From positions 26,253,323 to 26,317,322 of the forward strand of contig NC_041007.1 in the NCBI RefSeq assembly GCF_004193775.1: a stretch of DNA of 64,000 nucleotides, given 5' to 3'. The notes beneath the pieces are model-generated. The model was not told the origin of the DNA. It searched no databases and worked only from the letters and a program-made list of their open reading frames with translations. This document shows positions 19,174-61,156 of this stretch, piece after piece; within the stretch, counting starts at the first letter, position 1, and every line of letters starts with the position of its first letter. Both the position numbers and the translations under genes were made by a program. The DNA is from Glycine soja. Taxonomy: Eukaryota > Streptophyta > Magnoliopsida > Fabales > Fabaceae.

Positions 19174-21141
19174 TGTCGCAACGCACAGGGAAGGTATTAG
19201 CACCCCACGCGTCCGTCACAAGGGACGACAACCTTCAATTAAGTGCGCAAATATGACTTCAAAATTATGTATTTTTCCCTTTTTTTATGTTTTTATGTCT
19301 TTTTATGTCTTTTTGTATTTTTATCTTTTTGTGGTCGACAAGGGTGTTTCCCTCGCTCCTACGTATTCCTCAATTGCGATGAGGAAATCAGACCTACGTA
19401 GTTCTTTGAGAACTAAACGTTGGTTAAGTTGTTCTTATCTTTTTTTGCAAGATATATTTTAACCGAACAAAAGTCATTTAAGGCGTTGGACCATTAAACG
19501 ATCTTTTGATTTTTGGAAAGGAGAGAAACGTTAAGGCATTGGACCATTAACGATCTCTTGGGGTGGTCGACAAAAGCAGGGCTTTTGCTCCTACGTATCC
19601 TCAATTGCAATGAGGAAATCAGACCTACGTAGTTCTTGCAAAAGCGGTAAAGTTATGTATTGATTTTATGCTTTTGAATGGTCCATGTGAACCGATAAAA
19701 GCAAAGAGGACCGTTTAAGGTGTTGGACCTTAAAACGGTTTTCAGTGATTTTTGCGGACAAAGCTTGATTTGTGAGTTGATTTTAGCCTTAGTTTCACTT
19801 TGGTTATTAGTCAATTCATTCAAGGAAACTTCCAAAGAAAAACGTCTGATTGATTTTTTTGATTTATTTTATTCAAAGATATTTTGATTATTTTATTATT
19901 ATTTTTTCAAGATATTTTGATTATTTTATTATTACTTTTTCAAGATATTTTGATTATTTTATTATTATTTTGCCTTTTTTTGGTTTAACCGTGGTTATAG
20001 TGTGAACGATCGGTTAGATTTTGCTTTAACAGTGATTAAACGAAATTACAACGCAAATGATCAGTTGAAATTCATTTTATCATTTATTAGGCGAGATAAC
20101 GGCTTAAACGATCGGTGAAAGCTCGTTAAAAACGGAAGAAAATAAAACCGAAAGTGAACGAAATAAAGATGAAAGCCAACAAAACAAGAAATGAATTGAA
20201 AGTCTGGGATTCAAAAACTTACCAATTGAAGAACAAAGAACGGATGAAGAACGGTGAAGAACGATGGAAAATCTTCACGGAATTGCTCACGGAAACGTCT
20301 CGAAAGCGTTACAGAATCACCTCGGCTTGGATTTCCTTCACGGAAACACGTTTTTTCACCCAAAACAACTGAAATGCATAGCCAAGGGGGTTAGAGACTT
20401 TTTGGAACAATCCCCTTCGCTTATTTATAGGAAAAGGGGGAGGAGGTTGCCGCCTAGTACTCCCAGGCAAGCTAGGTTGCTTCCTCCTTAAGAACCCAGC
20501 TCCAAAAATGTTATGGAAGGGCCTAGATTCGAAAGTTTGAAAACTGCTATTTGCACCCCCATCATGATAAGTTCACCCTCTTTTTCGTAATTTATGGAAA
20601 AGTTACGGAAACCTTACAGAAGCATATATGACTTTATTTTCCTCTTTTTTCTCTTCCCTTTCACCAATATTAAGGGATATATGCTTACCCAAGGTTTTCG
20701 AAAATTTTACGGAAGCATTATTGAAGTCCTTGAAGCCCCAGAAACCATTTTTCGACAAAACGTGGAAGAGCTTGCCGCCCAGTTGCTTCCTCCTTAAGCA
20801 ACCCAACTTCCAAAATGTTCGGGAAGGGCCTAGATTAAAATTTCTATTTACACCCCTATCTTGATAAGTTCACCCTTTGTTTTTGTGTTTTTGGTTGTTT
20901 TCTTTTTGAAACCTCACGGAACTTTACGGATTCCACCGTGATGAGTGTTAAGCCTTCCAAAGCGATCAACAATGGTACTCGGATGAAATTAAAGTGTAAC
21001 AGTTTATTTACACACTCCCCACTTTGCTAAATACACTCCCATTTACGGATTCCACAATGATGGATGCTAAACATTTTGAGGTGGTCAAGCGAAGGTCGTA
21101 TGCCAACATAAAATGGTCTCCGGATGAAATTAGGTATGACA
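19174..21141 (-). mobile_element. 5' LTR of T2 (Tat/Ogre-like), 1968 bp
   Basis: On the minus strand it starts TGTCATACCTAATTTCATCCGG (ending at +21141) and ends GCGACA (+19174). TATAAATA lies at 20422-20429, the GTAAGT donor at 20217-20222, covarying hairpins at 19710-19739, 19529-19552 and 19477-19498, and TACGTA elements at 19590-19632 and 19359-19401. Compared with T1 and T3 it has lost about 150 bp of U5 just before GTTGCGACA. It has also duplicated part of U3 (20450-20590 against 20770-20890) and expanded a TTTTGATTATTTTATTATTA unit to three copies (about 19870-19975). Confidence 0.85.
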
Positions 21142-21260
21142 TTGACACCGAGCATGGATCTCAAGGAACTTGTTTTACTTGGTAAAAGTTGTCGTTTGGC
21201 GAGCAGGTGTTGGATTTCCCCTGCAGTTACTTTTTGGTCCACTTTTTCTTTATACAAATA
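21142..21260. other. Short unassigned stretch
   Basis: About 120 bp between the T2 LTR start and the K3 LTR-like sequence. It may be old flanking DNA or a decayed LTR edge. Nothing recognisable. Confidence 0.3.
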
Positions 21261-22741
21261 TGTTGAAGGGAAATCCAATTTGCTGGAAAGTGCACCGGAT
21301 CGTCAAGTATTTAAAATTAAAGCGGATGAATCCGAGTATCGAACTCAGGGAACTAGTCTTAGATAGGGTTAAATTCAGAAATAAGGCATTGTTGAAAGAA
21401 ACATTGATAGTTGATGATTTAGAATAGAATTAAACTAAGTCTAGGCTAAAAACAGTAAAAATGCAAGTAAGTAAAATTGACAACAATAGGTAAAGATGTT
21501 GGGTCTTTCTAACAGACCAGCTGATGTATATAAAGATGTTTCTCTAATCAATTGTGCTTTTGTGTTCTATGCTATAGCTTAAATTACTAAACCTCGATCC
21601 CTAGTTAGACTAAATCAATCCAAGCTTTGTCCTCATATCCCTCTTATTGGACTAGGCTTAATTTAGACAGCCCTCCTAGGTTTAGACTAACTTAAACTAA
21701 GCTTCATCCTCAGATCCCTCTTGTTGGACTAGACTTAGCTTAAATAGCTTATGAAAGTTTAGACTAATTTAGCCTAAGCTTTATCCTCAGATCCCTCTTG
21801 TTGGACTAGACTTAGACCAAACAACATTATTGTAACATCATATTTAAAACCAAAACTTAATCCGCAGATCCCTCATTTAAGACAAAGTTTCAATTCTGCT
21901 TCATTCAAGTTCTAAGGGAATAATACATTTCCCAATGCTAAAGTCACCTAACCAGGCACACAAATGGTTGATCAGACCAAGAGCATATAGAATTTAAGCA
22001 TTGAAAGAAGCATTGAACACAAGAAACACAATCAATTAGATATTAAAGTAATTACATCAACTGTTCTTTAGAAATCCCCAACAAGGGTGTTTAGCCAGCC
22101 ATTACAGAAAAAACCCTAACAATAATGAGATTACAAAACCTAGGTATCTCTGCAAAAGCTTCTCCTCTTGCTGCCTTCATAGTTCTTTTCCCGAAATAGG
22201 CATTGTGGTGTGCTCTGGAATTTTGTGCAAATCTTCTCTATAAAATCCGTACCTTAATTCTGCACAAGACAGACTTTAAATAGGCTATGAATCTGTGATG
22301 TTGCGCTTAGCGCCACCCTCGCGCTTAGCGCGAGTAACTGGATTTGAGCTTAGCGCCAGTCTTTCGCTGAGCCTGGCTGAAGACAACTACTGCGCTTAGT
22401 GCACTGATCTCGCGCTTAGTGCGCAGCCTTGAAATTGATGTTCTGCCAGATTCCTCTATTGCGCTAAGTGTGCTGAAGCTACACTTGGCGGTGGATGCGC
22501 GCTTAGCCCACTGATGAGCTAAGCTCAACTGCCACTTTTAGCACTTCATGACTTAGCCTTTTTTTCACCTAAAATTGCACATATTTCATCATTAAATCCA
22601 ATAAAAATATTCTAGAGACAACATTCACAATAAAACAAGATTTATTTACAAACTCCTACAAAAATAACCATAAATTGGGGAACTGTACAAGTTTTGGAAA
22701 ATGTTTTCTATACAAAAGTTAGTCGTATAAGATGACTAACA
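21261..22741 (-). mobile_element. K3: LTR of the TGTTAGTC family
   Basis: On the minus strand it starts TGTTAGTCATCTTATACGACTAAC (+22741) and holds a CGCTTAGCG-type cluster (22295-22520). It continues through the conserved block with GGGATCTGAGGATGAAGC-like words to a tail containing GTGCACTTTCCAGC. The left end is placed at TGTTGAAGGG (21261) by analogy with the TG...CA rule; no target duplication is visible, so that edge is uncertain. Only one LTR and no interior: solo LTR or fragment. Confidence 0.65.
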
Positions 22742-25144: not shown

Positions 25145-26930
25145 TGTCATCCCCTAATTTCGTCCAAGGACCATCCGTTGTTGGGATGCGACCCTCGTTT
25201 GACCACTTTGAGGTACTTGGCACCCATCGTTAGGCAATTCGTGAAGTTCCGTGACGTGTCGGAATTCAAAAGAAAATATTGTTGCACAACCCGTGAAGTT
25301 CCGTGACATGCCGGAAGTCAAAAGGAAGTGTTAGTGCGCAATCCGTGAAGTTCCATAACATCCCGGAAGCCAAAAGAGGGGATGATTAAGTGATCCGTAA
25401 GGTTTCGTAACATTACGGAAAGAAAACAAGTATCGTTATGTAATTCGTAAGTTTCCGTAACGTTACGGAAAAAGAATCAGCAAAAAAAGGCAAGGGGTGT
25501 ATTTAGTAAACAGGGGGTGCAAATAGCAACCAGGCCCACTTGGGCCTTCCAGGAAGTTCTCCAGAAGGCGGTGCCTTCTAGAGGAACCAACCTAGCTCGC
25601 CTGGGCGTGTTGGGTGGTAAGCTCCTCCATCATTTTCCTATAAATAGGGGGAGGAGGGAAGAACAAAAATGTTCAACCCTCCTAGTATCTGAGAATTACT
25701 TAAAATTAGTGAGAAAAATTGTTTCCATGAAGAAAATCCAAGCCGAGGCGCTTCCGTAACGCTTCCGTGACGTTTTCGTGGGTGATTTCGCAAAGATTTT
25801 CAACCGTTCTTCGTCCGTTCTTCGTCGTTCTTCGGTCTTCAACCGGTAAGTTCCCGAAATCGAACTTTTCATTTCATTCTATGTACCCTTAGTGGTCCTC
25901 ATTTGTTTCGCGTGCTTTTATTTTCATTTCATTTACTTTCCGTACCCCCTTTTGACGTGCTTTAGTCATTTATTTAAGTCATTTTCTCGCCTAATCAAAA
26001 ATAAAATAAATTTCCACCGATCATTCGTATTATAACATCCCTTAATTTCAGTTAGAATGAATTCTGACCGTTCGGTCATGCCATAACCACGTTTAAAACC
26101 AAAAAGAGGCAAAATAATAATATAATAATCAAAAATATCTTTTAGTAAAATAAATCAAAAAAATCAATCGGACGTTTTTCTTTGTGATTTTTCTTTCTTA
26201 CTCAAATTGACTAATAACTAAAGTGAAACTAAGGCTAAAATGAATTCATAAATCAAATTTTTGTCATTACCTAAAAAAGCCATTTTTAAGGTCCAACGCC
26301 TTAAAATGGTATTTTCCGCCTTTATTGGTTAAACGTAGATTTCTAAAAAGCCTAAAATCAACACGTAGTTTTGTTACCTCTTGCAAAAAATAATAAGAGA
26401 TCATTAATGGTCCAATTCCTTAATGTTTTCTCTCCTTTTAAAAGAATCGAACGATTATTTAATGGTCCAATGACTTAAATGACCTTTCATTCAATAAAAA
26501 CATATCTTGCAAAAAAGGATAAAAAATAACTTAACCAAGCGCTTTGTTCTCAAAGAACTACGTAGGTCTGATTTCCTTATCACAATTGAGGAATACGTAG
26601 GAGCAAAGGGAAACACCCTTGTCGACCACAAAAAGATAAAAATATAAAAAGGCACAAAAAGACATAAGAACGTAAAAAGGGAAAATAACATAAAGTAATA
26701 TTTGCACATTTGATTAAAGGCTGCCGTCTCTTGTGATGGATGTGTGGGGTGCTAATACCTTCCCCGTGCATAAATACAACTCTTGAACCTTTCGCTTAAA
26801 GTTCGAAGACCACCTCTTTTCTGACGTTTTCCTCAAATAAACGTTGGTGGCGACTCCGCGCGTATTCCTTTCTTGGAAGACGCACCCGCGAGTCATGCGT
26901 CGCCCTCCCGCCGAAGGGTAGGTTGCGACA
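25145..26930 (+). mobile_element. 5' LTR of T3 (Tat/Ogre-like), 1786 bp
   Basis: TGTCATCCCCTAATTTCG...GGTTGCGACA. The U3 palindrome TTTCCGTAACGTTACGGAAA (about 25452) is perfect. GCTCGCCTGGGCG lies at 25595, TATAAATA at 25639, the GTAAGT donor at 25846, hairpins at 26280-26309, 26402-26425 and 26457-26480, and the TACGTA element at 26558-26600. A perfect PBS follows at the right edge. Confidence 0.9.
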
Positions 26931-26932
26931 GT

Positions 26933-26950
26933 TGGCGACTCCACTGGGGA
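26933..26950 (+). other. Primer binding site of T3
   Basis: TGGCGACTCCACTGGGGA, two bases inside the LTR end. Same sequence as in T2 on the other strand. Fits a tRNA-Arg primer. Confidence 0.85.
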
Positions 26951-27799: not shown

Positions 27800-29674
27800 A
27801 TGGGATCAAGTCAAACGCCTTCGCTTAAAAAGAGGTTCTATCAAGTCAAGGTCAAGAGCCTAGGGATCACCAGTCTAAAAGAGTTAGGGCAGTTGATGGG
27901 TCAGCTCTAGCGGCAAGCATTTCGCAAAGCTTACGGTAAAATCTGGGACCTAGCCATGGTAGAAGTCTCCACAGAGTCCATTGCCTCCCTCGCTCAATAT
28001 TATGATCAGCCGTTGAGGTGCTTTACCTTTGGGGACTTCCAGCTATCACCCATGGTGGAAGAATTTGAAGAGATCATAGGATGTCCTCTAGGGGGAAGGA
28101 GACCATACCTCTTCTCAGGGTTCTATCCCTCATTAGCTAGAATTTCTAAGATAGTCCAAATCTCGACGCAGGAATTAGACCACAGAAAGCAAGTCAAAAA
28201 TGGGGTGGTTGGAATACCGAGAAAATGTTTGGAGGCAAAAGCAAGAATCTTGGCAGGTAAAGGCGAATGGGCCCTGTTCATAGACATTCTCGCACTGTTG
28301 ATCTTTGGAGGAGTCCTCTTTCCAAATGTGGATGGGTTGGTGGACTTAGCAGTGATCGACGCTTTTCTCGCCTATCATGACCACAAGGAAAGCCCTATTG
28401 TCGCTATGCTAGCCGACCTATATGACACCTTTGACCAAAGATGTAAGAAGAGAAGTACGAGGATTGTTTGTTATACTCCGGCTCTTTATGTATGGTTGGT
28501 TTCGCACCTTATTCGCCAAGAGGTGAGGCATGCTTGCCAGCTAGAAAGCCACCGTTCATGCACAGAGAAAGGAGGGGCAAATTGGGACCAAATCTTAGTA
28601 AACAAAGAAGAAGCGTCTGTCAATTGGTTCCCTCGATGGAAAGAAGGAAGAATCGGGATTCTTATTTCGTGTCGAGGATTTCCAAATGTTCCCTTGATGG
28701 GGACAAGGGGTTGCATCAGTTACAATCTCGTTCTTGCTATAAGGCAACTTGGCTACCCTATGAGAGGGGCACCACTAGAGAAAGAACTCGCGCCTGTCAT
28801 TTCATGAGGTTTCAATAAGACCAATGTGGAGACACTTCAGAAGGTTCACAAGGCATGGGAGGTGGTGCAAAAGAAGGACAAAGAACTCAAGGGCAGTAAC
28901 AATGGGCCCATCGGTGGCTACCGTAAGTGGTTGAAAGCCCACCTGCAAGGTTTGGATTGGCTCCCGAGTTTGAGAATCGCTAAAAGGGAGGAAGTTGAGG
29001 CACTAGAGGAAGACGAAGAGGTACAGACCCTTAGGACAAAACTCGAGCAAACCCAAATAGTCAAAGAAAGGTTCAAATCAGCAACTCTTAAAATCCGAAA
29101 GGAGAATGCCGAACTGAGAGATATAAATATAGCTACCACCAAGGCCTTGGAACAAGAGACCAAGAGGGCTCGTAGGGAAGAGCACGACCGGAACAAGTTC
29201 CGAGGGGCTCCGTGGGGCAGCAACAGCGAGCTTAAGCTCCGGGGAGAGGAAAGAGACCAATCACGAGTAGACAATTTGATCTTGAAAGATGAGTTGAAGG
29301 TTTGCTCGAGGTCCAAAAAAAACCTGTCTCAGTGGTTATGCGAGACAGAGACCAACATGTTAGCCATCATCAGCAAGTACCAAGAAGAACTAAATCTAGC
29401 CATGGCCCATGAGCATAGAGTGGCGGACGAGTATGCCCAAGTGTACGCAGAAAAGGAGGCTAGAGGAAGGGTGATCGACTTGTTACATCAAGAGGCAACA
29501 GTGTGGATGGACCGATTTGCTCTTACCTTGAACGGGAGTCAAGAACTTCCCCGATTGCTAGCCAAGGCAAAAGCAATGGCGGACACCTACTCCGCCCCTG
29601 AGGAGATCCACAGACTTCTCAGCTATTGTCAGCATATGACAGACTTAATGGCCCATATAATTAGAAACCGCTAG
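27800..29674 (+). pseudogene. T3 ORF1: plant-mobile-domain-like protein with coiled coil
   Basis: ORF1 lies upstream of gag, the arrangement that defines Ogre-type elements. The ATG at 27800 opens a frame of about 624 codons broken by TAG at 27908 and TGA at 28805, both in frame. Residues ~50-340 resemble the aminotransferase-like plant mobile domain (DUF7745-type): YYDQPLRCFTFGDFQLSPMVEEFE, IIGCPLGGRRPYLFSGFYPS, ALFIDILALLIFGGVLFPN and GRIGILISCRGFPNVPLMGT. Residues ~400-520 are Lys/Glu-rich and predicted coiled coil (EEVEALEEDEEVQTLRTKLE; LRDINIATTKALEQETKRAR). The C-terminus is helical. The function in Ogre is unknown. The only other Tat copy with this region in the window, T2, has lost it. 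Confidence 0.8.
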
Positions 29675-30689: not shown

Positions 30690-31246
30690 TGTGCTAAAGC
30701 TAGAGTAATAGGTGAAGTAGAGGAGGTGCAAGAGCATATGAAGGCCGACATGGAGGCCATGAAAGAGTAAATGGCCACAATGATGGAGGCCATGATGAGC
30801 ATGAAAAAGATAATGGAAGCCAGTGTGGTTGCTGTTGCCACTACCAGCGCTATTGCTAAGGTGAACCCGATGCCCCCATCTGACCTCAACCAAATGAATC
30901 ATCCAACCTCAGATATGGTAGGCAAAGATTTGGGAAGTACGAATGGCCCCATGATGTGAAAATTCAAAACGAGCACGCCTTCCCGCCATATGGCTTGCCT
31001 CCCAACTATACACCACCCAATGTGGCATACACTCCCAATGAGGATGTCAATAACTCCACTCCCATACTCGTTGAGAGCCGACAACCTCATCATGTACATG
31101 TCTCTCAACCCATGGGGGAGACACATGAAATTCCCCACCTCAATCTAGCCGACTTTGAGCCTTTCCTTGGATATGCCATTGAAGGGCAAGCAGTTGGTGG
31201 TATACCCCTACAAAACACTTTGGAGGGCCCTCAATTTTGCCCCCAA
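30690..31246 (+). pseudogene. T3 gag, N-terminal fragment
   Basis: Reads VEEVQEHMKADMEAMKE, stop, then MATMMEAMMSMKKIMEAS, a linker with NPMPPSDLNQMNHP, another stop after GPMM and, in a shifted frame, IQNEHAFPPYGLPPNY...PHLNLADFEPFLGYAIEGQAVGG. It ends where Copia sequence begins near 31250. The gag core, protease, RT and integrase are gone. The first stop and the frame change are shared with T2 gag. Confidence 0.8.
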
Positions 31247-34059
31247 CCACAAGTGCTCTTCCTATCTTTTTTTGATCCAGCAAAATCTGAATCTGAGTAT
31301 CCTACTAAGTTGCATAAAGAATTCTTAGGATACCATAATCTTAAACTAACTGTTCCTAATAAATATCTTATAATTCTTTTTACTGCCATTAAATGTGAAA
31401 ACTTTGGATCTGATTGAAATCTTGCACACATGCATACACTAAACATAATGTCTGGCCTACTTGCAGATAAGTAAAGTAGAGATCCAATCATACCTCTGTA
31501 TTGCTTTGGATCAACAGGTTGACCAGATTCAACTTTGTCAAGATAACAACTTGTATTCATAGGGGTAGCCAAGTGTTCTGAGTTTTCCATTCCAAATCTC
31601 TTAATGAGTTCTTTGCAATATTTTGCTTGATTGACGAAGATCCCATCATTTGTTTGTTTGATTTGTAGTCCAAGAAAGTAATTTAACTCACCCATCATGG
31701 ACATCTCAAACTCACTTTGCATATCAATAGAAAACTCCTTGCACAAAGATTCATTAGTAGATCCAAAAATTATATCATCAACATAAATTTGTACTAACAA
31801 GATATCATTATCCTTCCTTTTTATGAATAATGTAGTATCTACTTTCCCTCTAGTAAAATTCTTTTCTAATAGGAATTTACTTAATCTTTCATACCAAGCC
31901 CTAGGTGCTTGTTTTAGGCCATAAAGTGCCTTCTTTAATCTATAGACATGGTCTAGTTTTTGTGAATCTTCAAACCCAAGAGGTTGTTCCACATATACCT
32001 CTTCCTGAATTAGACCATTTAAGAAAGCACTTTTGACATCCATTTGATATAGTTTAAAATTCATAATAGATGCATATGCTAATAACATCATAATGGCTTC
32101 TAATCTAGCTACAGGTGCAAAAGTTTCTTCATAGTCTATACCTTCTTCTTGGTTATATCATTTTGCTACAAGTCTAGCTTTATTCCTAATTACTATACCA
32201 TTTTCATCCAATTTATTTCTAAATACCCATTTAGTTCCTATGATTGGATAATCTGAAGGTTTTTCTACTAATACCCATCCATCATTTCTTTCAAATTGAT
32301 TTAATTCTTCTTGCATAGCTACTATCCAATGGTCATCTATAATAGCTTCTTTAAAGTTTTTAGGTTCTATTAATGAAACAAATGCCATATTATTGCATAA
32401 ATCTTTAAGAGAGTGTCTAGTTGTTACCCCTTTTGAGATATCACCGATGGTGTTATCAAGAGGATGATTTCTTGAAGTTTTCCATTCTTTAGGAAGATTA
32501 TCATTTTCTTGTCCTGTGTCATCTTGATCATCCTTGTCTTCATCATCTCTCTTTCTTTTTAGATTTCTTTCTTCATTTTGAGTATCTTCCAAAGTATCTG
32601 CAATATCATCAACAGACTCCTTTCTCGGGGAGGTAATGTTAGTTTCATCAAAAGTAACATGTATTGATTCCTCAATTTTCATAGTTCTTTTGTTGTATAT
32701 TCTAAATGCTTTACTATGTAAGGAATACCCAAGGAAGATACCCTCATCTGCCTTGGTATCAAACTTTCCTAGACACTCTTTACCATTGTTTAGAACAAAA
32801 CATTTACATCCAAAAACATGTAAATGTGCAATATTTGGTTTTCTATTGTTAAAAAGTTCATATGGGGTTTTCTGAAGAATAGGTCTAATTAAGGCTCTGT
32901 TCATAATATAACAAGCGGTGTTAACTGCTTCTACCCAAAAGTATTTTGGAAGAGGTGTGTCATTTAAAAGAGTTCTAACAATTTCTTCTAGGGCTCTATT
33001 TTTCCTTTCTTCTACTCCATTTTGTTGGGGTGTCCTTGGTGCAGAAAAGTTGTGTTCTATGCCATACTCATCACAAAACATTTCAAAATCATTATTTTCA
33101 AATTCACCTCCGTGATCACTTCTGATGGAGATGATTTTGAGATTCTTTTTGTTTTGAATGACTTTGGCAAGTCTTCTAAATGCATGAAATGCATCATTCT
33201 TATGAGTAAGAAATAAAGTCCAAGTATATCTAGAATAATCATCAACAATTACTAATGCATAGTAACTTCCACCAAAACTCATGACTCTAGATGGTCCAAA
33301 CAAATCCATGTGTAATAATTGCAATGGCTTAGTGGTAGAAACAATATTTTTAGATTTGAAGGATACTTTTGTTTGTTTACCTTTTTGGCACGCATCACAT
33401 AAATTATCTTTTTCAAATTTTAATTTAGGCAATCCAATAACTAGATCTTTTGAAATTAACCTATTTAGATGATCCATGTTAATATGAGCAATTCTCTTAT
33501 GCCGTAACCATGGATCACAATCTTTACTTAAAAAGCATCTATCATTTACAGATTTTTGTTTTAGATCAATCATGTAAACATTATTTTCTCTAAAACCAAT
33601 ATGTTCAATATCTTTGTCATGCTCATGCTTAATAACGCATTTTTCAGAATCAAAAGATACTTTATATCCTTTATCACATAATTGACTAACACTTAATAAG
33701 TTGTGCTTCAAACCTTCTACAAGCAACACATTTTCAATGGGAGTAGAAGAATTCGTACCTATTTTGCCGACTCCAATAATTTTACCCTTGTTGTTCTCGC
33801 CGTATGTAACATGTCCACTTTTCTTGGGGGAAATAGTTGTGAATTTGGATACATCACCAGTCATGTGCTTGGAACATCCACTGTCTATATACCATTTCTT
33901 CCTTATAGAATCTTCTTTGTTATTCTCATTAGATTTTGTCATGAGACACAAGTTGACTTGGTCTTCATCATCGTCTTTGAGTGACCTGTTCCTGAAAATT
34001 CTTTTGAAAGACAAAGAATCTAAAGAGGCCATTTTACAAGAAACCTGCTCTGATACCAC
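31247..34059 (-). pseudogene. C1 Copia polyprotein (protease, integrase, RT), gag missing and 3' truncated
   Basis: One frame of about 937 codons with a single in-frame TGA near 32158. Order: protease WYIDSGCSKHMTG (D-S-G active site); the His/Cys pre-integrase zinc region ending CDACQKGKQ; integrase core with LLHMDLFGP, SIRSDHGGEF and PQQNGVEERKNR carrying the D, D and E residues; a charged Glu/Asp-rich linker; RT with [10 protein letters not shown] and YVDDIIFGS; and the start of RNase H (SDSDFAGS). The reading frame begins almost inside the primer site, so gag has been deleted. RNase H breaks off at KSTCG and runs into T3 gag sequence, so the 3' end and 3' LTR are lost. The type resembles soybean Ty1-copia, perhaps Sirevirus-related. 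Confidence 0.88.
34047..34058 (-). other. Primer binding site of C1
   Basis: On the minus strand TGGTATCAGAGC, two bases inside the LTR end CCAACA: a perfect match to the standard initiator-Met tRNA primer site of plant Copia elements. Confidence 0.88.
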
Positions 34060-34060
34060 T

Positions 34061-35693
34061 TGTTGGATCGAGTGGCCTTAGAATAATTATGAAGGGGGGT
34101 TGAATTAATTATTCCTAAACCTTTACTAATTAAAAATTACTCTTTTAAGGCTTTTACTAAATTTTTAAGAGAATGAGGAGTAGAAGAGAAACTTAACAGA
34201 AAGTAAAAGCGGAAATTAAATGCACAGTGGAAAGCAAAAGAGTAGGGAAGAAGGAAACAAACACACAAGAGTTTTTATACTGGTTCGGCAACAACCCGTG
34301 CCTACATCCAGTCCCCAAGCGACCTGCGGTCCTTGAGATTTCTTTCAACCTTGTAAAAATCCTTTTACAAGCAAAGATCCACAAGGGATGTACCCTCCCT
34401 TGTTCTCTTTGAACCTAGTGGATGTATCCTCCACTAGAACTGATCCACATGAGATGTACCATCTCTTGTTCTCAATCAAACCCAAGTAGATGTACCCTCT
34501 TCTTGTACCAAAAAGGATGTACCCTCCAATGTGTTAAGACAAAGATCTCAGGCTGTTAAACCTTTGATTCTTTGTGAATGGGGATACAAAAGAATTCTCA
34601 TGCGGTTAGTCCTTTGAACACTTTTGTATAAGGGAATGGGAAGAATCAAAAGAATTCTCAGACTGTGTCCTTTTGAATTCTTTGACAAGAGAGAAGGGAG
34701 ACACAAAAGAATTCAGGCGGTTAGTCCTTTGTTCTTTTGGAAAAGGGAGAAGAGAGACACAAAAAGAATTCAGGCGGTTAGTCCTTGGCGAATTATTTTT
34801 GGCAAAGGGAGAAGGGAATGAAAAGATGAATAGCACAAGTTTTCAAGGTTTGGAAAACTAGAAAACTTCAGAAAGCTTTTGGTACAAAGAAGAAGAAGTT
34901 CAAAGAGATTCAAGGCTTGTAAAGGATTGTATGAATAAGTGTTCAAGATTATTGAAATGCAAAACAAAGCCTTGCTTTTATAGACTCTTCATGTCTGGTC
35001 AAGAAGACCATTTAGAAGAGTTATAACTTTTAGAAAAACTTAAAACCAATTTGAAAAAGTCAAAAACCTTTTTGAAGAGTTACATCTTTTGATTTATCAG
35101 AAACAGTCACTGGTAATCAATTACCAAATTAGTGTAATCGATTACACAAGGCTTTTAAGTGAAAGGATGTGACTCTTCACATTTGAATTTGAATTTCAAC
35201 GTTCAAGGGCACTGGTAATCGATTACCAAAACATTGTAATCAATTACAGCCTTTTGAAAATAATTGGAACGTTGTAAATTCAGTTTGAAAACTTTTTCAA
35301 ACTCAATTTGCTACTGGTAATTGATTACAACAATATGGTAATCGATTACCAGAGAGTAAAAACTCTTTGGTAAAAGGTTTTGTCAAAAACTCATGTGCTA
35401 TTCAAAGTTTTGAAAAAACTTTTTAATACTTATCTTGATTGAGTCTTCTCTTCATTCTTGAATCTTGAGCCTTGAATCTTGATCTTGATTCTTGAGATCT
35501 TGAACCTTGAATCTTGATTCTTGTCTCCAGACTTTCTTCTTGAGTCTTGAATTCTTCTTGATTCTTATCTAGAACTCTTGAATTGTTCTTGATTGATCTT
35601 TGAGCTTTTTGTCATCACCTTTGTCATCATCTTTTGTTATCATCAAAACACCTTTGAATCACCTTTGAGTCACCATGAAGCTTTGCTTCTACA
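34061..35693 (-). mobile_element. 5' LTR of C1 (Copia), about 1633 bp
   Basis: On the minus strand TGTAGAAGCAAAGC...GATCCAACA. It contains palindromic words of the GGTAATCGATTACC type (35110-35360, six or more variants), TTGAATC-type short repeats (35440-35600), an imperfect tandem of about 60 bp with AAAGAATTC and GGCGGTTAGTCC (34590-34800), and TATAGA at about 34980. Only this LTR remains. It lies inside K4. Confidence 0.8.
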
Positions 35694-44486: not shown

Positions 44487-44489
44487 TAA

Positions 44490-45075: not shown

Positions 45076-45089
45076 CCCAAAGTGATTCT

Positions 45090-45836: not shown

Positions 45837-45840
45837 ATTT

Positions 45841-47618: not shown

Positions 47619-49090
47619 TCATGGTGGAGGAAGAGTAGGGTGGAGTAAGGAAGTCTCTTCCACCACTACATCCACTAAAGAAGGGTTTGTGAGGAATGGC
47701 TTCAGTCGGTGTCCATTGACCTTGAAGCTCTTTTTTGTGGAGTCGCTTTTGATCTCAACTGTAACATAAGGAAAAACATTAGTAACAAGAAAAGGACCAA
47801 TCCACTTAGACCTCAACTTACCACTCATGAGTCCAAGCCTAGAATTATACAATAACACTTTTTGCCCAACCATGAAGTCCTTCTTAATTATCATGCTATC
47901 ATGGAACTTCTTGGTCTTTTCTTTGTAGAACTTGGCATTCTCATACGCTTCTAGGCGGATCTCATCTAACTCACTCAGTTGCAACTTTCTTTCCTCACCA
48001 ACTTGATCCATAGAGAAGTTGCAGGTCTTCACTGCCCAATATGATTTATGCTCAATCTCCACTGGAAGATGACATGCCTTTCCAAAGACAACCCGATAAG
48101 GAGACATTCCTATGCGTGCTTTGTAGGTAGTCCGATGTGTCCAAACATCAAGCCTGGTTTCCTGCTTGGCTGCACAATCTTCTCTAAAATTCTCTTGATC
48201 TCCCTGTTAGAAATTCCTACCTGTCCATTAGTTTCAGGGTGGTATGGTTTGGATACCCTGTGTACAACCCCGTACTTTTTAAGCAAGGCATGCATTGATT
48301 TGTTGCAAAAATGGGTTCCTTGATCAATAACGATTGCTTTAGGTACTCCAAACCTGCAAAACAGATTAGATCTGACAAAATCTGCAACAACCTTAGCATC
48401 ATTAGTTCTAGTGGGCTTGGCCTCCACCCATTTTGAAACATAATCAACTGCAAGGAGAATGTGAACATAACCAAAAGAGATAGGAAAAGGGCCCATGAAA
48501 TCTATGCCCCAAACATCAAACACCTCACAGAATAGCATAGGTTGCTGAGGCATTTGTTGTCGCCATGTAAGTGCACTTCCTGCTCTCTGACACTGCTCAC
48601 AAGTGCTATAAATCTTCCACGCATCTTTAAAGATGGTGGGCCAATAAAAGCCACAGTCAAGCACTTTGCGAGCTGTCCTTTGAACACCAAGATGACCTCC
48701 CTGTGCGGAAGAATGACAGAACTGCAGGATTGAGTCAGTCTCATGCTTTGGAATGCATCATCTAATGACTTGATCACTGCACAATTTCCACAAGTAGGGG
48801 TCATCCCAAATAAAATGCTTAGCATCACTTTTAATTTTATCTTTTTGAGCCATAGATGCTAAGGGAGGAAAAACATAAGCAACTAAATAATTGACAATGT
48901 TAGCAAACCAGGGAGTAGAAAGAGAATCAGAAATACTATATAATATATACAAATGATCATCCGGGAAATCATCCTGAATGGGTGAATCCTCATCAGACAC
49001 ACGTTTGATCCGACTCAAATGATCAGCAACTAAATTTTGTGCTCCGCTCCTATCACGGATCTCCAAGTCAAACTCTTGGAGCCAGAGCAT
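47619..49090 (-). pseudogene. A1 integrase region
   Basis: Minus strand. RNase H tail ([28 protein letters not shown]), a His/Cys zinc region partly in another frame, core YSTCEQCQRAG, VWGIDFMGPFPISFG, RFGVPKAIVIDQGTHFCN and PYHPETNGQVGISNREIK, then the C-terminal GPF-type module (GKLRSKWIGPFLVTNVFPYV). The first two catalytic Asp residues are present, but the expected Glu of the D,D-35-E triad is Gly (GQVGISN where the family has GQxEVSN). A frameshift lies near 48110 between core and C-terminal module. Inactive. Confidence 0.82.
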
Positions 49091-49093
49091 CCA

Positions 49094-50524
49094 TCAGATC
49101 AATCTAGGCTTTGAATCAGCCTTCTTCAACAAGTACTTTAGAGCTGCATGGTTAGTATAAATAATAATGCGAGTACCAAGCAAATAAGAATGAAATTTTT
49201 CAAGAGCAAAAATTATGGCTAGTAGCTCTTTCTCAGTAGTAGTATAATTCGCTTGGGCAACATCTAAAGTCCTAGAAGCATAATATATCACCCTAGGCAA
49301 TTTATCAATTTCCTGAGCAAGGACAGCCCCCAATGCATAATTTGATGCATCACACATAAGCTCAAAAGGGGCTGTCCAGTCGGGTGCCTTGATGATGGGT
49401 GGTAGGCAGTGTTCTTTTGAGGCAATCAAAAGCCTCTTTGCATTTATCATTAAAGTCAAACTCCACCTCCTTTTGCAACAAGTTGGATAGTGGAAGGGCT
49501 ACCTTGCTAAAATCTCTTATAAAGCGCCTGTAGAATCCTGCATGACCAAGAAAAGATCGCACTCTCGCATGCAAGAGCGGTGAGGCAATTGTGAAATAAC
49601 ATAAATTTTTGCAGGATCCCCTTCAATGCCCTTATTGGAAATAATGTGGCCTAAAACTATACCTTGCTCAACCATAAAATGACATTTTTCAAAATTTAAA
49701 ACAAGATTAGTTCCAATGCATCTATTCAAAACCTTTTCCAGACTATCCAAACAAATATCAAAAAAGGATCCATATACAGTGAAATCATCCATAAACACCT
49801 CTATGCAATTTTCTAAAAAATCACTGAAAAAAATGATCATGCACCGCTGGAAGGTACCAGGGGCATTGCACAGGCCGAAAGGCATCCTCCTATAGGCAAA
49901 AGTGTCGAAGGGGCAGGTGAATGTGGTCTTTTCCTGATCCTCAAGAGCAATAGCGATTTGGATATAACCAGAAAAGCTATCAAGGAAACAGTAGTGAGAT
50001 TTACCTGCCAGGCGTTCAAGCATCTGGTCAACGAATGGCAGGGGAAAATGGTCCTTTTTGGTAACCTGGTTCAGCCTCCTATAGTCAATGCAAACTCTCC
50101 AACTGTTATGCACCTGAGTAGGAATCAGCTCCTCCTTCTCATTTTTTATCACGGTGAGGCCGGTTTTCTTCGGGACTACCTGGACAGGACTCACCCATTG
50201 GCTGTCGGAGATAGGATAAATGATTCCAACTTGCAAAAGCTTGGTTACCTCCTTCTTCACTACATCAAGAATCACCGGGTTGAGTCTTCTCTGTGGCTGT
50301 CTTACTGGTTTAGTCCCATCCTCTAAATTTATCCGATGCATACATGTGGATGGGCTAATACTAGGAATGTCCGCCAGGGTCCAGCCTATAGCCTTCTTAT
50401 GCTTCTTGAAAACTGATAACAACTTCTTCTCTTGCTCATCAGCAAGGGAGATAGATATAATTACTAGAAAACTTTTGCTATCATCCAAGTAAGCATATTT
50501 TAAATTTGATGGCAGAGGCTTCAA
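49094..50524 (-). pseudogene. A1 reverse transcriptase and RNase H
   Basis: Minus strand. RT opens with ILDVVKKEVTKLLQVGIIYP, VCIDYRRLNQVTKKDHFPLP, FLDSFSGYIQIAIALEDQEK and RMPFGLCNAPGTFQR; the catalytic block is EVFMDDFTVYG (FMDD). A frame change near 49560 links to the thumb (RSFLGHAGFYRRFI), and another near 49400 to RNase H with APFELMCDASNYALGAVL, TTEKELLAIIFALEKF and the IYTNHAALKYLL block. The usual D-E-D residues of RNase H are partly altered (TNHAA where TDHAA is expected). Confidence 0.85.
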
Positions 50525-50572
50525 TTCTGGTGTGGGCAGCTGGATAATGGTAGAAAGAAATGGTTTCTCAGC

Positions 50573-51484
50573 CTATACCTCATAAAGAAAGTCAGAGGTA
50601 TGTGTACTTCCTAAAACATGGTTAGTTCTATTTGACTCTAGAAAATCAATCTCAAGAGGTAAAACATCACCAGACATGTAATCAATATCAATTTCAGATT
50701 CACTCTCAGCATCAAATTCAGCCATATGATCAAGTACAAATTCAGATTCAATGCATGAAGAGTGACAGGCATGCAGATTAGAATGAAGATCAGTCATGTA
50801 TTCATCAACAATATGGTCAATTATTTCAGCGCGAAATACAGAAAGACCTTCAGATGGGTGTTTCATAGCATCAAGAATATTAAAATGAACAGTTATATCA
50901 CCAAACTCCATAGATAGTGTGCCTGCATATACATCTATCTTAGTTCTAGCAGTTTTCATAAAAGGTCTGCCTAGAATGATGGGAACTGATCCTTGAGAAA
51001 ATCCCTCCTCCATATTCAAAATATAAAAATCAACAGGGAAAATTAGTTCACCAACTCTAACTAAGACATCCTCTATGAAACCAGCAGGATAGGCAACACT
51101 TCTATTAGCTAAATGAATTACCACATTAGTTGACTGCAAAGGACCAAGAGATAGAGAATTAAAAATAGACAAAGGCATAACACTAATAGAAGCTCCTAAA
51201 TCTAGCATGGCATTGTTAAACTTATTGTTCCCTATAATACAAGGTATGCTGAATGTACCTAGATCTTTACATTTTTCAGGGATTTGGGGAACAGATTTAC
51301 CAATCAATGTCGAGACATTTCTGCACATACTAATTCTTTCACTTCCTTTAAGCTTCCGCTTATTAGTGCACAACTCCTTCAAGAATTTAGCATATCTTGG
51401 AATTTGCTTTATTGCATCCAGCAGAGGTATGTTTACCTCTACTTTTCTAAATGTTTCCAAGATCTCCTTCTCTGCTTCTTCCAT
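50573..51484 (-). pseudogene. A1 retropepsin-like protease
   Basis: Minus strand, 303 codons. The active-site motif AMLDLGASISVMPLS (D-x-G-A) is followed by the flap-like region and VPIILGRPFMKTARTKID, then an acidic linker toward RT. This is the Athila-type aspartic protease that cuts the gag-pol precursor. This piece is itself open. It ends with a stop just before the RT frame. Confidence 0.85.
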
Positions 51485-51499
51485 TTTTTTGTTGGAAAT

Positions 51500-53264
51500 T
51501 GCTCTTGGAGGGAATGGAAGAGGGATATGCTGCTTCTGTAAATCAGAATTACCAGTGGAAGATTCACCTGCATAGAAATTGTTAGGTAACTTACTCTTTA
51601 AATTTTTGTCATCATCTTTTTCTAGAGTAGAGTGAAGTTGGGCAGGTTCATTTGCGGATGAGGAAGATGTTGCTGATTGAGGTCCTTGACACTACTTTCC
51701 CGACCTCAATGTAATGGAACTCACATTTTTGGGATTCTGGACAGATTGAGAAGGTAATCTATCAGAATTTTGGGACTGTTGTTGATTTAACTGTGTAGCC
51801 AATTTTCCCATCTGATTAGTTAAGCTCTGAATGGAGGCTCCGGTCTCTTGTTGAAACTGCATGTGTTTGCATAGTCCTTTGCCTCACAAGTTCTTCAAGG
51901 GAAGGTTGCGGAGGAGCCTCAACTGTTTGTTGTTTCTGGGGATGTTGCTATTGTTGTTGTTGTTGTTGGATTGGTGGAGGAACGTATGGTCTACTTGGGC
52001 CAGCAGCATTCTAGAAATAAGGCTGTTGTTGTTTTTACTGTTGTTGTGAAGGATTCGACCATTTAAGGTTGGGATGATTCCTCCACCCGGGATTGTACCT
52101 GTTGCTGGAGAGGTCATAATTGTTCTGTTGTGGCTGATTTTGCTGCTGAGGTTGAGGAGGTCTATTGTAGATGTTTGCAGCATAAGCTTCAGGCTATTCA
52201 ATTGCTTCAAATTGTTGCACAGAAGGGCAAAGGTCTATGTGGTGGTCGGCAGAGGAGCATAAACCACAGAGTCTGGCGACTGGTGCAGATTTCTTATTCA
52301 TGGCCAGTTGGGTTACTAGGTTAACCAAGGCATCTAGTTTACCTTCAAGCTTCTTAGTCTCAGCTGATGAAGATGAATTCGTGGCTACTTCATGCACTCC
52401 TCTAATGACAATAGCATCATTTTTGGCACTAAATTGCTGGGAGTTGGAAGCCATCTTCTCAATTAAATTTCTGGCTTCAACAGGGGTCATGTCTCCAAGG
52501 GCTCCACCACTGGCAGCATCTATCATACTTCTCTCCATGTTATTGAGTCCTTCATAAAAATATTGGAGAAGAAGATGCTAATAAATCTAGTGGTGAGGGC
52601 AACTGGCATATAGTTTTTTAAATCTCTCCCAGTATTCATATAGGCTATCTCCACTGAGTTGCCTAATGCCTGAAATATCCTTTCTGATGGCCATGGTCCT
52701 GGAAGCAGGGAAAATTTTTTCTAAGAATACTCTCTTGAGGTCATCCCAGCTCGTGATGGACCTTGGAGCAAGGTAATATAGCCAATCCTTTGCCACTTCC
52801 TCTAAAGAATGAGGAAAAGCCTTCAGAAATATGTGATCCTCCTGAACATCTGGGGGTTTCATGGTGGAGCAGACAATATGGAATTCTTTGAGATGTTTGA
52901 GTGGGTCTTCACCTGCAAGGCCATGAAACTTTGGAAGCAAATGGATCAGTCCAGGTTTAAGAACATATGGGACATCCTCATCAGGGTATTGGATGCACAA
53001 GCTTTCATAACTGAAATCAGGTGCAACCATTTCCGTTAGATTCCTCTCACGAGGTGGAGGTTGTGCCATGTTCTCAGAATGTTCAAAATTATAATGCTCA
53101 AAATCAGGATGTTCAAAATCACCAATAATAGAATGCACAGACTCACCAGTAACAAAATGCTCAGGATGCTCAAAAGGTACAAAATGATGCCTAACTAATC
53201 TATGAAATGTCCTATCTATCTCAGGATCAAAGGGTTGTAATTCAGATGGATTGCCTCTAGTCAT
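51500..53264 (-). pseudogene. A1 gag
   Basis: Minus strand. Starts MTRGNPSELQPFDPEID; the gag core includes KFHGLAGEDPLKHLKEFHIV, SLEEVAKDWLYYLAPRSITS, WDDLKRVFLEKIFPASRT and SLYEYWERFKKLYASCPHH, then stops near 52570-52590. A second frame covers ERSMIDAASGGALGDMTPVE and a zinc knuckle CGLCSSADHHIDLC (C-x2-C-x4-H-x4-C). The C-terminus is Gln/Asn-rich (GTTGTT repeats at 51950-52060). Forms the particle and packages RNA in intact relatives. Confidence 0.85.
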
Positions 53265-54015
53265 ACACTACATTCAGCATGCACAACTAGTTGCCTTCTT
53301 ATGCAAGTAACAGTGTAGGTTTGAACTACAACTACCATCAAATGATATCCAAATGACTTGAAATTTTTTGAGCAACACCCTAAAATCATGAAAAGATGGC
53401 ACAAAAATTTTCTGGCAAAAATTCAAAGTCTAACTATGGAAACTACCTAAGGAAAGTTTAGAAAAATAAAACAATAAAACTTGAAAAAAGAAAAAAACTA
53501 GTAGAAAGGCGATTTTGTTTAGCTAGAGACTTCAGCCGGCCTTTGGTGGCTACCACGATATGGGAAATTGTTTTCTACCCCAAATACATATATAATTATA
53601 GTCATTCTGATACCTGGAGCAAAAGTTATGGCCGTTTGAAGTTTTGGTAAACACAAGTTCTCAAATTTTTTTGAATCTCTCAAATCTGGCCACAACAAGT
53701 GTTCCTGGTATTTTGCACACAAAATATGAGTCAAAAGAACCTACCACACCAAAATTCAGCCAAAAATAACAACCCTAACTATCAAAACAAAAATTGCCAA
53801 TTAAATTCCCAGGTCAGCAAAAGTGGTCGCTAAATCCGTCACAAAACATTATTCCCAGCAAAACACAAAAACTGAAACAGGGGACGCGCTGAACAAAAAA
53901 AACTAAAACAAAACACCACACTTAAAAAATAACAAGACACTAACACAACACGAAAGCATAAAACAACTAAACATAAAACACGAATTACAAGCTATTATGA
54001 ACCTTTGGACACTGC
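53265..54015 (-). other. A1 5' untranslated region
   Basis: About 750 bp between the primer site and gag ATG. No gene. Confidence 0.65.
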
Positions 54016-54033
54016 TCCCCCGCAACGGCGCCA
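54016..54033 (-). other. Primer binding site of A1
   Basis: On the minus strand TGGCGCCGTTGCGGGGGA, four bases inside the LTR end; one base from the classic tRNA-Asp site of Athila elements. Confidence 0.85.
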
Positions 54034-54037
54034 AATT

Positions 54038-58346: not shown

Positions 58347-59531
58347 TTGTTAGTCAGTGAATACGACTAACTTTTGTGTATAAAACCTGTGTAAATAGTA
58401 TCAAACTCCTCCAATTTACTGTTATTTTGTAGTATTATAAGTACTTTTTGTTAAGTATAGGTAATAAATACTTAGTACTTCCATTTTGTGTGTTTTATAA
58501 TCATTTTCTCTCAATTTTAGGTTAATTACGCGACTCTGAAAAATGCTACTTTTCACCTTCTCGCTAAGCCAATCTGTAGGCTTAGCGAGCGTCCGCTAAG
58601 CGCAACACTCATTAGCTAAGTGCAAGGAAGAATCTAGAAGATGAGTTGAACAGGTTCGCCGAGCGCACCGCTTCATCTCGCTAAGTGCACCACTTCAGTT
58701 CATCCGCTGAGCGAAAAGAGCATGTGCTAAGACGAAATTCACTAATGTGCGCTAAGCAGATCAAAGTTGCGCTAAGCGCACGAGCACGAACAAGGCCACC
58801 TATTTAAGCCTGAAATCAGATTTAGAGAGGGGAGTTTGGGCTGAGATCTGAAGCTTTGCATATCTAGTGATTCTAGAGAGAGAAAGGTCCAAGTTCCAAA
58901 GAGTTTTGAGAGATTTTGCTGTGTGAAGATCTGCAGAGACCAGAGCTTGAAGAGGAAGCCGTTCTGAGAGCTTGAGATGAGTTTATGAGTGGTTGTGAGA
59001 TCCTAGAGGTGAAGGAGACATCCTCACCACTTGTATTTTTGAAATCTTTCATCTTGTTCTTCTCTTTGTTCTAAAGGAGACTTGTTATGGAAAGCTAAAA
59101 TCCTCTGTTGGATCTTCCTTGTAGGTACCTGATGTAAATATCTTTCTATCTATTTAATGATGTTTTGTGTGTTCTCTGTGCTATCAACTTTTCATTTTAG
59201 TATGTCTTTACTGTGATCACGTAGATGCATGCTTTGTTAAGGTCATTCAACAGTGGAAAGTGGTCTGATTCTGTTGACCTTGATAGGACAGGGCTAAGTT
59301 GTCATACTATCACGAGGAATTGGGGTGTCATAATTTAGTTGTAGTATATTTGTCTTAATCCAGTCCTAGTTAAGTTTATTCCAACAAGAGGAATCTGAGG
59401 ATGATGCTTGATCAGGATTAGGCTAAACTATCATGAGGAATCAGGGTTTAGCATCTCAGGAGACACCATGGGAACACATAAGCATTGTTAGATAGAAAAT
59501 ATCATTTTAGCATTAGGCACCTATTAGGAAG

Positions 59532-61156
59532 TGTCATACCCTAATTTCGTCCGGGGATTATAATTTGATGATATACAACCATTGATTGGCCACTTCGAGA
59601 TATTTGGCACCCTTTGTTTCACAATATGTGAAGTCCCGAGACGTGCCGAAAATCAAAAGGAAGCAGGCTTACGCGATCCGTGAAAATTCCGTGATGTGAC
59701 AGAAATCGAAAGGAGGTATTTTTCGCAATCCGTGAGTTTTCGTAACTTCTTCGAAAGCTAAAAAAGAGTAAATACATAATCCGTAAGGACTCGTAACCTT
59801 GCGGAAGGAAAATAAGTATCGTTACGAAATTCGTAAATTTTCGTAACGTTACGGAAAAAGAATTACCAAAAAAGGGTAGAGGGGGTGCATTTAGTAAAAA
59901 AAGGGGGGTACAAATAGAAATCAGGCACACTTGGGCCTTCCAGATTCTTCCTCCAGAAGGCTATTGCTTCTGGAGGAAGCAACCTTGCTTGCCTGGGCGA
60001 ACAGAGCTCGCCTGGGCGAGTTGGGTGGCAAGCTCCTCCCCTATTTTGCTATAAATAGGGGGAGGAGTGAAGGGAGAAGGGGTTGAGCCTTCTTGGCACT
60101 TCTTATTCTCTCGAAATTGCTGAGGAAAATTATTTTCGTGAAGAAAATGCAAGCCGAGGCGCTTCCATAACGTTTCCGTAAGTAATTACGCGAAGATTCT
60201 CGATCGTTCTTCAACATTCATCGTTCGTTCTTCGTTTTCTTCAGTCTTCAACGGGTAAGTACTTCAAACCGAGCTTTTCAATTCATTCTATGTACCTGTG
60301 GTGGTCCACATTTTGTTTCATGTATTTTTATTCTCGTTTTCATTCGCTTTCTATACCCCCTTTTGACGTGCTTAAGTCATTTATTTAAGTCATTTCTCGC
60401 CTAATCTAAAAATAAAATAAATTTCCAACGATCATTTGAATTGTAGTATTCGTTAATTTCTGTTAAAATGAATTCCGACCGTTCAGTCGTGCCGTAACCA
60501 CGTTGGAAATCAAAATAGAGGTAAAATAATGAATATAATAATCAAAAAATACCTTTTAGTAAAATAAAATGAAAAATCAATCGGACGTTTTCTCTTTGGG
60601 ATTTCTCATTCTTAATTGAATTGACTAATAACTAAAGCGAAACTAAGGCTAAAATCAATTCACCAAGTCAAGCTCGTCCACAAAAAATAGGGTTTTGAAA
60701 GTTTATCATTTCAGTTTCTTATCAAGTAAAATGGATCATTTTTAAGGTCCAACGCCTTAAAATGATCACCTTTCAAGTAAAAAGAATCGGTTGATTCAGG
60801 TTTAAGAAAGAACTACATAGGTCTGATTTCCTCTTCGATAGAGGGTACGTAGGAGCAAGAGCCCCGCTTTTGTCGACCTCAAAAAAATAAAAAAGAACTA
60901 AAGTTAAGATAACACAATTTCCACAATTCTAAAAAATAGGTTGTTGTCCTTCGAGACAAACGTAAGAGGTGCTAATACCTTCCTCAAGCGTAAATACAAC
61001 TCCTGAACTTAGAATTTTCATTTTGACCGGTTTCCTTCGGTTTTCCCGATGTTTTCCACAAATAAACGTTGGTGGTGACTCCGTGCATCTTTCCTCCTTT
61101 GGAAAGCGCACCCGTGAGCCTCGCCTTCGCTCGCCCGCGAAGGGCACATTGCGACA
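59532..61156 (+). mobile_element. T4: solo Tat/Ogre LTR nested in K5
   Basis: TGTCATACCCTAATTTCGTC...CACATTGCGACA, 1625 bp. Flanks GGAAG (59527-59531) and AGAAG (61157-61161): target duplication with one change. TATAAATA 60050, GTAAGT 60255, hairpin 60734-60767, CTACATAG/TACGTAG 60813/60846. The first TACGTA copy has a CG-to-CA change. Confidence 0.88.

What the first reader, a model, noticed from the sequence alone, without database searches (positions are those of the whole stretch)
19477..60767. Hairpin family with a near-invariant 7-base loop and covarying stems in the Tat/Ogre LTRs
Eight hairpins share loop TCCAAYN closed by GG/CC (one by GG/AC), read in element orientation. T1 8712-8745 (stem GATCATTTTAAGG); T4 60734-60767 (same stem); T3 26280-26309 (CCATTTTAAGG), 26402-26425 (CATTAA/TTAATG), 26457-26480 (ATTTAA/TTAAAT); T2 on minus 19710-19739 (ACCGTTTTAAGG), 19529-19552 (CGTTAA/TTAACG), 19477-19498 (TTTAA/TTAAA). 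Stem bases change on both sides together (CATTTT/AAAATG against CGTTTT/AAAACG; CATTAA/TTAATG against CGTTAA/TTAACG) while the loop stays. That is the signature of selected RNA structure. I know of no described element like this in Ogre/Tat LTRs. Being in R-U5, it would lie in the RNA leader and could act in packaging, dimerisation or translation.
Basis: seen in the sequence. Interest (0 to 1): 0.75.

Follow-up and report, generated by a model that had tools for sequence, protein, structure and literature searches.

The report
Repeated RNA hairpins in soybean-like Ogre LTRs
A very abundant jumping element in this soybean-like genome carries, in the leader part of its transcript, one to five copies of a short hairpin whose loop hardly ever changes while its stem changes mostly in a matched way, which suggests a docking site for a protein or RNA that the element needs.

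Summary
An anchor outside the hairpins matches 11,739 times in the window's own 1.01-Gb genome, control 0. I took 70 LTRs by that anchor plus the window's four: 73 of 74 carry the hairpin, 145 copies, one to five each. Loop bases are 93-100% conserved except one C/T position. Stems differ between lineages and mostly stay paired. Covariation beats a tree-based null (total p = 0.0005), but rests on three or four pairs and few independent changes; the inner pairs hardly vary. Genome-wide, one pair is G-C 4557, A-U 1307, G.U 306, A.C 226. Selected RNA structure is likely. Strand evidence is mixed (G.U 71, A.C 60; antisense folds slightly better). Function is inferred: I favour repeated Gag-binding (packaging) hairpins. 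Rfam at gathering level has no match in these LTRs, and my paper searches showed no description. Other species could not be tested.

The parts
7519..9169 (+). LTR T1 (no PBS match after its end, so probably a 3' LTR)
   Evidence: LTR-start, TATA, donor-like, anchor and LTR-end motifs
59532..61156 (+). LTR T4 (no PBS match after its end, so probably a 3' LTR)
25145..26930 (+). LTR T3, followed by PBS 26932-26950, so a 5' LTR
19174..20228 (-). LTR T2, donor-like site to LTR end; PBS 19154-19172, so a 5' LTR; its outer start was not found
8712..8745 (+). hairpin of T1, unpaired C in 5' arm
60734..60767 (+). hairpin of T4, one unpaired T in 5' arm
26276..26315 (+). hairpin HA of T3 (reader: 26280-26309) with outer AAAA/TTTT pairs
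26396..26433 (+). hairpin HB of T3 (reader: 26402-26425), unpaired T beside GG
26449..26488 (+). hairpin HC of T3 (reader: 26457-26480), G/A at the loop-closing pair
19710..19739 (-). hairpin HA of T2
19522..19558 (-). hairpin HB of T2 (reader: 19529-19552)
19468..19508 (-). hairpin HC of T2 (reader: 19477-19498), outer CAAAAG/CTTTTG
8784..8848 (+). module M1 (CTACGTA...TACGTAG around an inner TCTC/GAGG hairpin) and M2 hairpin, T1
60813..60872 (+). module M1-M2, T4
26558..26621 (+). module M1-M2, T3
19571..19632 (-). module M1-M2 (first copy), T2
19359..19401 (-). module M1 (second copy), T2; its M2 follows
25638..25650 (+). TATA box, T3 (also 8017-8029 and 60049-60061)
   Evidence: 25 of 30 sampled loci with up to 1 mismatch
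25840..25851 (+). splice-donor-like CAACCGGTAAGT, T3 (also 8229-8240, 60249-60260, minus 20217-20228)
   Evidence: exact GGTAAGT 314-398 bases upstream of the anchor in 26 of 30 loci

Best explanation
A family of cis-acting RNA hairpins in the R-U5 leader of a Tat/Ogre (probably Gmr9/GmOgre) element. SHOWN: a hairpin with a 5-7-base loop (UCCAAYG) on a GG/CC, AA/TT core; an unpaired base on the 5' side 2-9 pairs below the loop; outer stem that differs among lineages and mostly stays paired; 1-5 tandem or dispersed copies per LTR. INFERRED: conserved loop plus one-sided unpaired base plus several copies marks a protein-binding RNA hairpin read in the sense RNA. Most likely reader: the element's own Gag, with the copies acting together as a packaging signal. 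As the copies lie downstream of a conserved donor-like site, only unspliced RNA would keep them, so they could mark unspliced RNA for packaging. The loop fits the T-loop signature (U1-A5), a possible three-dimensional form.
For: Copy number and control; 73 of 74 LTRs, loop letters U 145, C 142, C 138, A 143, A 143, C or U 144, G 135 of 145; first unpaired base on the 5' side in 132, on the 3' side in 0, none within 10 pairs in 13. Tree null p = 0.0005. 2x2 genome counts for HB: G-C 4557, A-U 1307, G.U 306, A.C 226, odds ratio 86 (copies are related, so no P value is meaningful). Own arms fold better than swapped arms: -10.88 against -7.63 kcal/mol between classes and -5.06 with shuffled outer arms; within classes HA -11.11/-10.35, HB -10.70/-9.71, HC -9.92/-8.28. 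HA_pf shows T-A, T.G and C-G within the T3 clade, a stepwise path. Position after TATA and donor-like site. U1-A5 T-loop description: PMC4810234, passages.
Against: Few independent changes. HA_x2 has C.A in 10 of 68 against U.G in 1; HC_06 has C.A in 4 of 18. G.U is hardly commoner than A.C overall (71 against 60; 43 against 54 in the incomplete set), and the antisense strand folds slightly better on average (-11.63 against -10.88; sense lower in 35, higher in 57 of 95), so sense RNA is not proved. One lineage type has a C.A mismatch instead of the bulge. No RNA data, no Gag-binding data, transcription start and poly(A) site unknown, no acceptor looked for, no other species.
Confidence: 0.38

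Rival explanations
1. The hairpins are sense-RNA structures read by host proteins for nuclear export or splicing control of intron-containing element RNA (like a constitutive transport element), not by Gag.
For: Ogre is reported to splice between ORFs (PMC3735527 and PMC12786077, passages); a donor-like site is conserved upstream of the hairpins; PMC12786077 says whether plant LTR elements have export motifs is unclear (passage).
Against: No direct evidence; no known export element was matched (Rfam).
Confidence: 0.22
2. The conserved thing is double-stranded DNA: an inverted repeat with a fixed spacer, bound by a transcription or chromatin factor.
For: G.U not in clear excess over A.C; the 15-base core itself is nearly invariant; inner pairs do not covary.
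Against: The spacer is as conserved as the arms, the odd base is always on one side (132 to 0), outer arms change together while the loop stays; HC_08 genome counts G.U 532 against A.C 28, though these may be one inherited change.
Confidence: 0.2
3. The matched stem changes are mutational: copying of one arm from the other (quasipalindrome correction) or template switching during reverse transcription, with little selection.
For: Few events; the element replicates by reverse transcription; two LTRs (L043, L044) join the 5' arm of HB to the 3' arm of HC, so exchange at the core does happen.
Against: Correction should erase the unpaired 5' base, which is nearly universal; T.G intermediates exist; loop conservation is not explained.
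Confidence: 0.12
4. The loop acts by pairing with CGTTGG about 90 bases before the LTR end, next to a PBS-like TGGCGACTCC (kissing or long-range pairing; a loop C or U would both pair with G).
For: A CRTTGG lies 89-91 bases before the LTR end in 25 of 30 LTRs read.
Against: 25 of 400 permutations of the same letters score as high or higher (4 clades or more); 5 of 30 LTRs lack it there; no covariation shown.
Confidence: 0.06

Closest known systems
Gmr9/GmOgre (Tat/Ogre lineage, Ty3-gypsy) of soybean
   Same: Minisatellite-like arrays just before a 3' LTR, ORF1 upstream of gag, abundance of the right order (PMC3305785, part 1 of 3 read)
   Different: The part of the paper that I read does not mention leader hairpins; identity to the named family was not tested by sequence
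Retroviral packaging hairpins with conserved loops (such as the GACG-loop hairpins of gammaretroviruses; recalled, no call)
   Same: Several short hairpins with one loop in the leader
   Different: Loop sequence, unpaired 5' base, copy number varying from 1 to 5; no packaging data here
tRNA T-loop motif
   Same: Seven-base loop, U1 and A5, G-C closing pair; a relic in four LTRs reads GGTTCGATACC
   Different: Residue 2 is C, position 7 is mostly G; no tertiary partner known; three-dimensional form not tested
Hairpins with a conserved loop and one-sided bulge bound by a protein (iron-responsive element, MS2 operator; recalled)
   Same: Loop plus 5' bulge layout
   Different: Different sequences; no binding data
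Stem-loop conservation in long R regions of retroviral LTRs (PMC3601003, passages)
   Same: Conservation of LTR R regions linked to stem-loops
   Different: That paper links it to certain retroviruses in the passages seen; no Ogre hairpin there

Membership tests
Tat/Ogre, Gmr9/GmOgre | Tandem-repeat array between coding region and 3' LTR | tested here: met
   127- and 164-base repeats at about 5755-7533, next to LTR T1 from 7519; the five published repeat units (26, 38, 37, 105, 43 bp) were not compared
Tat/Ogre, Gmr9/GmOgre | ORF1 of unknown function upstream of gag | tested here: met
   DUF7745 ORF at 27911-28807 downstream of the T3 PBS, E 3.7e-88; gag of this copy not seen
Tat/Ogre, Gmr9/GmOgre | Ty3-gypsy reverse transcriptase of the Tat clade | not tested
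   A gag, protease, RVT_1 and integrase set lies at 48113-53267 minus, not assigned to these LTRs; no RT tree made
Tat/Ogre, Gmr9/GmOgre | TG...CA LTR with a PBS right after | tested here: met
   Seven LTR pairs aligned; ends GTTGCGACA then TTGGCGACTCC
T-loop motif | U at 1 and A at 5 of the pentaloop | tested here: met
   U 145 of 145, A 143 of 145
T-loop motif | Reverse Hoogsteen U-A pair and intercalated partner | not testable with these tools
   Needs chemical probing or a structure
Retroelement packaging signal | In the leader of the genomic RNA | tested here: inconclusive
   Downstream of TATA, upstream of LTR end; no transcript ends known
Retroelement packaging signal | Bound by Gag and needed for packaging | not testable with these tools
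   No binding or particle data
Any Rfam family | Match at gathering score | tested here: not met
   One match in the window, snoR71 at 52585-52691, outside these LTRs; T3 and T2 leaders at E up to 5 give only sub-threshold hits, best IRE_I at 20014-20048 on the antisense strand, 27.4 bits against 34
Selected RNA helix | Covariation above a phylogenetic null | tested here: met
   p = 0.0005 in total; three both-side pairs singly below 0.05
Selected RNA helix | G.U in excess of A.C on the sense strand | tested here: inconclusive
   71 against 60 overall; HC 532 against 28, HB 306 against 226 genome-wide

The most novel reading that the evidence does not exclude
The largest plant retrotransposon lineage uses a repeated, T-loop-like RNA hairpin (UCCAAYG on a bulged stem), kept only in unspliced RNA, as a multivalent Gag docking array for packaging, with the neighbouring M1-M2 module (palindromic CTACGTAG, twice) as a dimer-linkage or pseudoknot partner: a first defined packaging domain for a Tat/Ogre element.
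Probability: 0.15. Interest if true: 0.75.

Novelty: new variant of a known kind. Interest (0 to 1): 0.5.

Why it matters
Packaging and leader signals of plant LTR retrotransposons are hardly defined: for Ty1 and Ty3 a review says packaging sequences are not precisely defined (PMC4974528, passage), and a 2025 review of plant elements has no hit for 'packaging signal', 'hairpin' or 'dimeriz' in its main text (PMC12786077). A hairpin present in thousands of copies, with natural stem and loop variants already made by evolution, makes the question testable with simple binding and probing assays.

Tried and rejected
Plant relatives in public collections: the 17-base core matched 3 stretches in viral contigs and M1 matched 0 in viral contigs and 2 in genome contigs; the 3 core contexts lack the outer stem and M1, the 2 M1 contexts lack the hairpin, and such numbers are what chance would give (my estimate). 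No plant genome besides the window's own could be searched.

Literature: seven searches ran (four more were rejected for a character in a term). Nothing in their listings describes such a hairpin in Ogre/Tat LTRs; that is a claim about those listings and the passages read only. Steinbauerova 2008 is not held.

tRNA: ARAGORN finds none in the window. Loop-target pairing with CGTTGG: not better than 25 of 400 permutations. Strand test by G.U against A.C and by folding: inconclusive. In one search 29 of 145 copies did not fit the three class patterns and were left out of the covariation count (among them all 6 HD copies); only the first HB and HC copy per LTR counts. The 2x2 table for HC lacks the A-U cell: the search did not complete; G.U 532, G-C 213, A.C 28.
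Full report
What was checked. The eight hairpins are at the stated coordinates. They lie in four LTRs of one family: T1 7519-9169 and T4 59532-61156 (no PBS match after the end), T3 25145-26930 and T2 on the minus strand ending at 19174 (both with a PBS). The window's own assembly is held as an unnamed 1.01-Gb genome, soybean-like in size and element content (recalled, not tested).

Copy number and sample. The 21-base half-hairpin matches 11,581 times with up to 2 mismatches (reversed control 1). A 33-base anchor upstream of the hairpins matches 11,739 times with up to 3 mismatches (control 0). All 100 listed places are exact matches on contig C1; I used the first 30 and 40 of the next 41, plus T1-T4: 74 LTRs chosen without regard to the hairpin.

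Hairpins. 73 of 74 LTRs carry 1 (39), 2 (6), 3 (21), 4 (4) or 5 (3) copies, 145 in all; L069 has none. Core letters: GG 144 and 144, loop U 145, C 142, C 138, A 143, A 143, C/U 144, G 135, then C 141, C 142, U 145, U 143 of 145. Outside the core single positions fall to 34-60%. The first unpaired base is on the 5' side in 132 copies, on the 3' side in none, absent within ten pairs in 13. In HB and HC it is mostly a T beside GG (57 of 60); in HA it sits after AA (C or A) or in the T run.

Covariation. With a tree from the masked leader (532 columns), 68 HA, 24 HB and 18 HC rows, the summed score is 2.42 against -0.29 +- 0.81 for arms evolving independently from a paired root (highest of 2000: 1.90; p = 0.0005). 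Pairs: HB_07 A-U 16, G-C 6, A.C 2 (p 0.003); HA_e A-U 45, G-C 16, G.U 1, A/G 6 (0.0225); HA_pf U-A 54, U.G 6, C-G 8 (0.024); HC_09 C-G 12, U.G 6 (0.025, one side); HA_x2 U-A 32, C-G 23, C.A 10 and three others (0.06); HA_x1, HA_x3, HC_05, HC_06, HC_08 not significant; the other tested HB and HC pairs invariant. Earlier runs on the incomplete set agree, and sliding one arm by -2 to +3 columns drops the score from 3.02 to between -10 and -17 (this control favours the chosen register). The independent-pairs test gives about 4 same-way and 0 opposite changes with about 7 unchanged partners: direction is consistent, numbers are small.

Genome-wide tables. HB pair: G-C 4557, A-U 1307, G.U 306, A.C 226. 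HC pair: G.U 532, G-C 213, A.C 28, A-U not answered. The tool calls such counts lower bounds, and copies are related.

RNA or DNA. For RNA: a conserved spacer, the one-sided unpaired base, T.G intermediates, HC asymmetry. Against or neutral: overall G.U 71 against A.C 60, and the antisense folds slightly better. I put selected RNA structure at about 0.7.

Anatomy. Relative to the anchor, a TATA box lies 532-596 bases upstream in 25 of 30 loci (up to 1 mismatch) and an exact GGTAAGT 314-398 bases upstream in 26 of 30. In L007 the hairpin is about 690 bases after the TATA box and about 405 before the LTR end. Whether it is in R or U5 is open because the poly(A) site is unknown.

Neighbouring module. 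M1 (CTACGTA, GGTCTGATT, an inner hairpin, TACGTAG) occurs 85 times in 70 of 74 LTRs, followed by M2, either CAAAAGC/GCTTTTG or CAAGGG/CCCTTG with different loops. In M2 class I 20 copies are CAAAAGC/GCTTTTG and 13 CAAGAGC/GCTTTTG (A-U to G.U). GGTC of M1 and GACC after M2 could pair as a pseudoknot. Order differs by lineage: HA-[M1M2]-HB(n)-HC-[M1M2] in T2, HA-HB-HC-[M1M2] in T3, hairpin-[M1M2] in T1 and T4.

T-loop reading. U1 and A5 of the loop fit the T-loop description in PMC4810234 (passages); the tRNA consensus TTCRANN is recalled. At the first position, four LTRs of one clade (L047, L053, L054, L071) read GGTTCGATACC with a poor stem, and L026 and L064 read near variants: either a decaying copy or a second loop of the same signature.

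Mechanism. Multiple copies, fixed loop, bulged stem and leader position argue for a protein-binding array. Gag is the first candidate because the element must select its own unspliced RNA; this step is inference. Export or splicing control by host proteins is the main rival.

Novelty. No Rfam family matches in these LTRs at gathering level. Structured leaders are a known kind; this family, its loop and its variable copy number appear undescribed in the listings that I searched.

Noticed in passing
window 8784-8848, 26558-26621, 60813-60872, minus 19571-19632 and 19359-19401: Module M1-M2: palindromic CTACGTAG twice, about 40 bases apart, around an inner hairpin, then a covarying hairpin with two loop classes; GGTC and GACC could form a pseudoknot.
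   Followed up: partly
window 25840-25851, 8229-8240, 60249-60260, minus 20217-20228: Conserved splice-donor-like CAACNGGTAAGT in the leader, upstream of the hairpins; 26 of 30 sampled loci have exact GGTAAGT. No acceptor was looked for.
   Followed up: partly
window 26842-26857 (T3): A PBS-like TGGCGACTCC inside the LTR about 80 bases before its end, matching the first bases of the real PBS.
   Followed up: no
window 6578-7533: The 164-base tandem repeats before LTR T1 contain a sequence close to the LTR start (TGTCATACMCTAATTTTC), as if the array grew from the LTR edge.
   Followed up: no
window 5349-5364 and 5601-5616: Two M1-like CTACGTAGGTCTGAGT copies outside the LTR, ahead of the tandem repeats, without a TCCAAYN hairpin.
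   Followed up: no
L047 83, L053 84, L054 84, L071 83 (positions from the anchor): First-position relic GGTTCGATACC, letter for letter like a tRNA T arm.
   Followed up: partly
L043, L044: 5' arm of HB joined to 3' arm of HC across the shared core, a natural chimera by deletion.
   Followed up: no
window 52585-52691 +: snoR71 plant snoRNA match, 40.2 bits against gathering 40, opposite a gag-like ORF (52590-53267 minus).
   Followed up: no
window 31234-34077 minus: Copia-type element (RVT_2, integrase) nested downstream of the T3 leader and ORF1.
   Followed up: no
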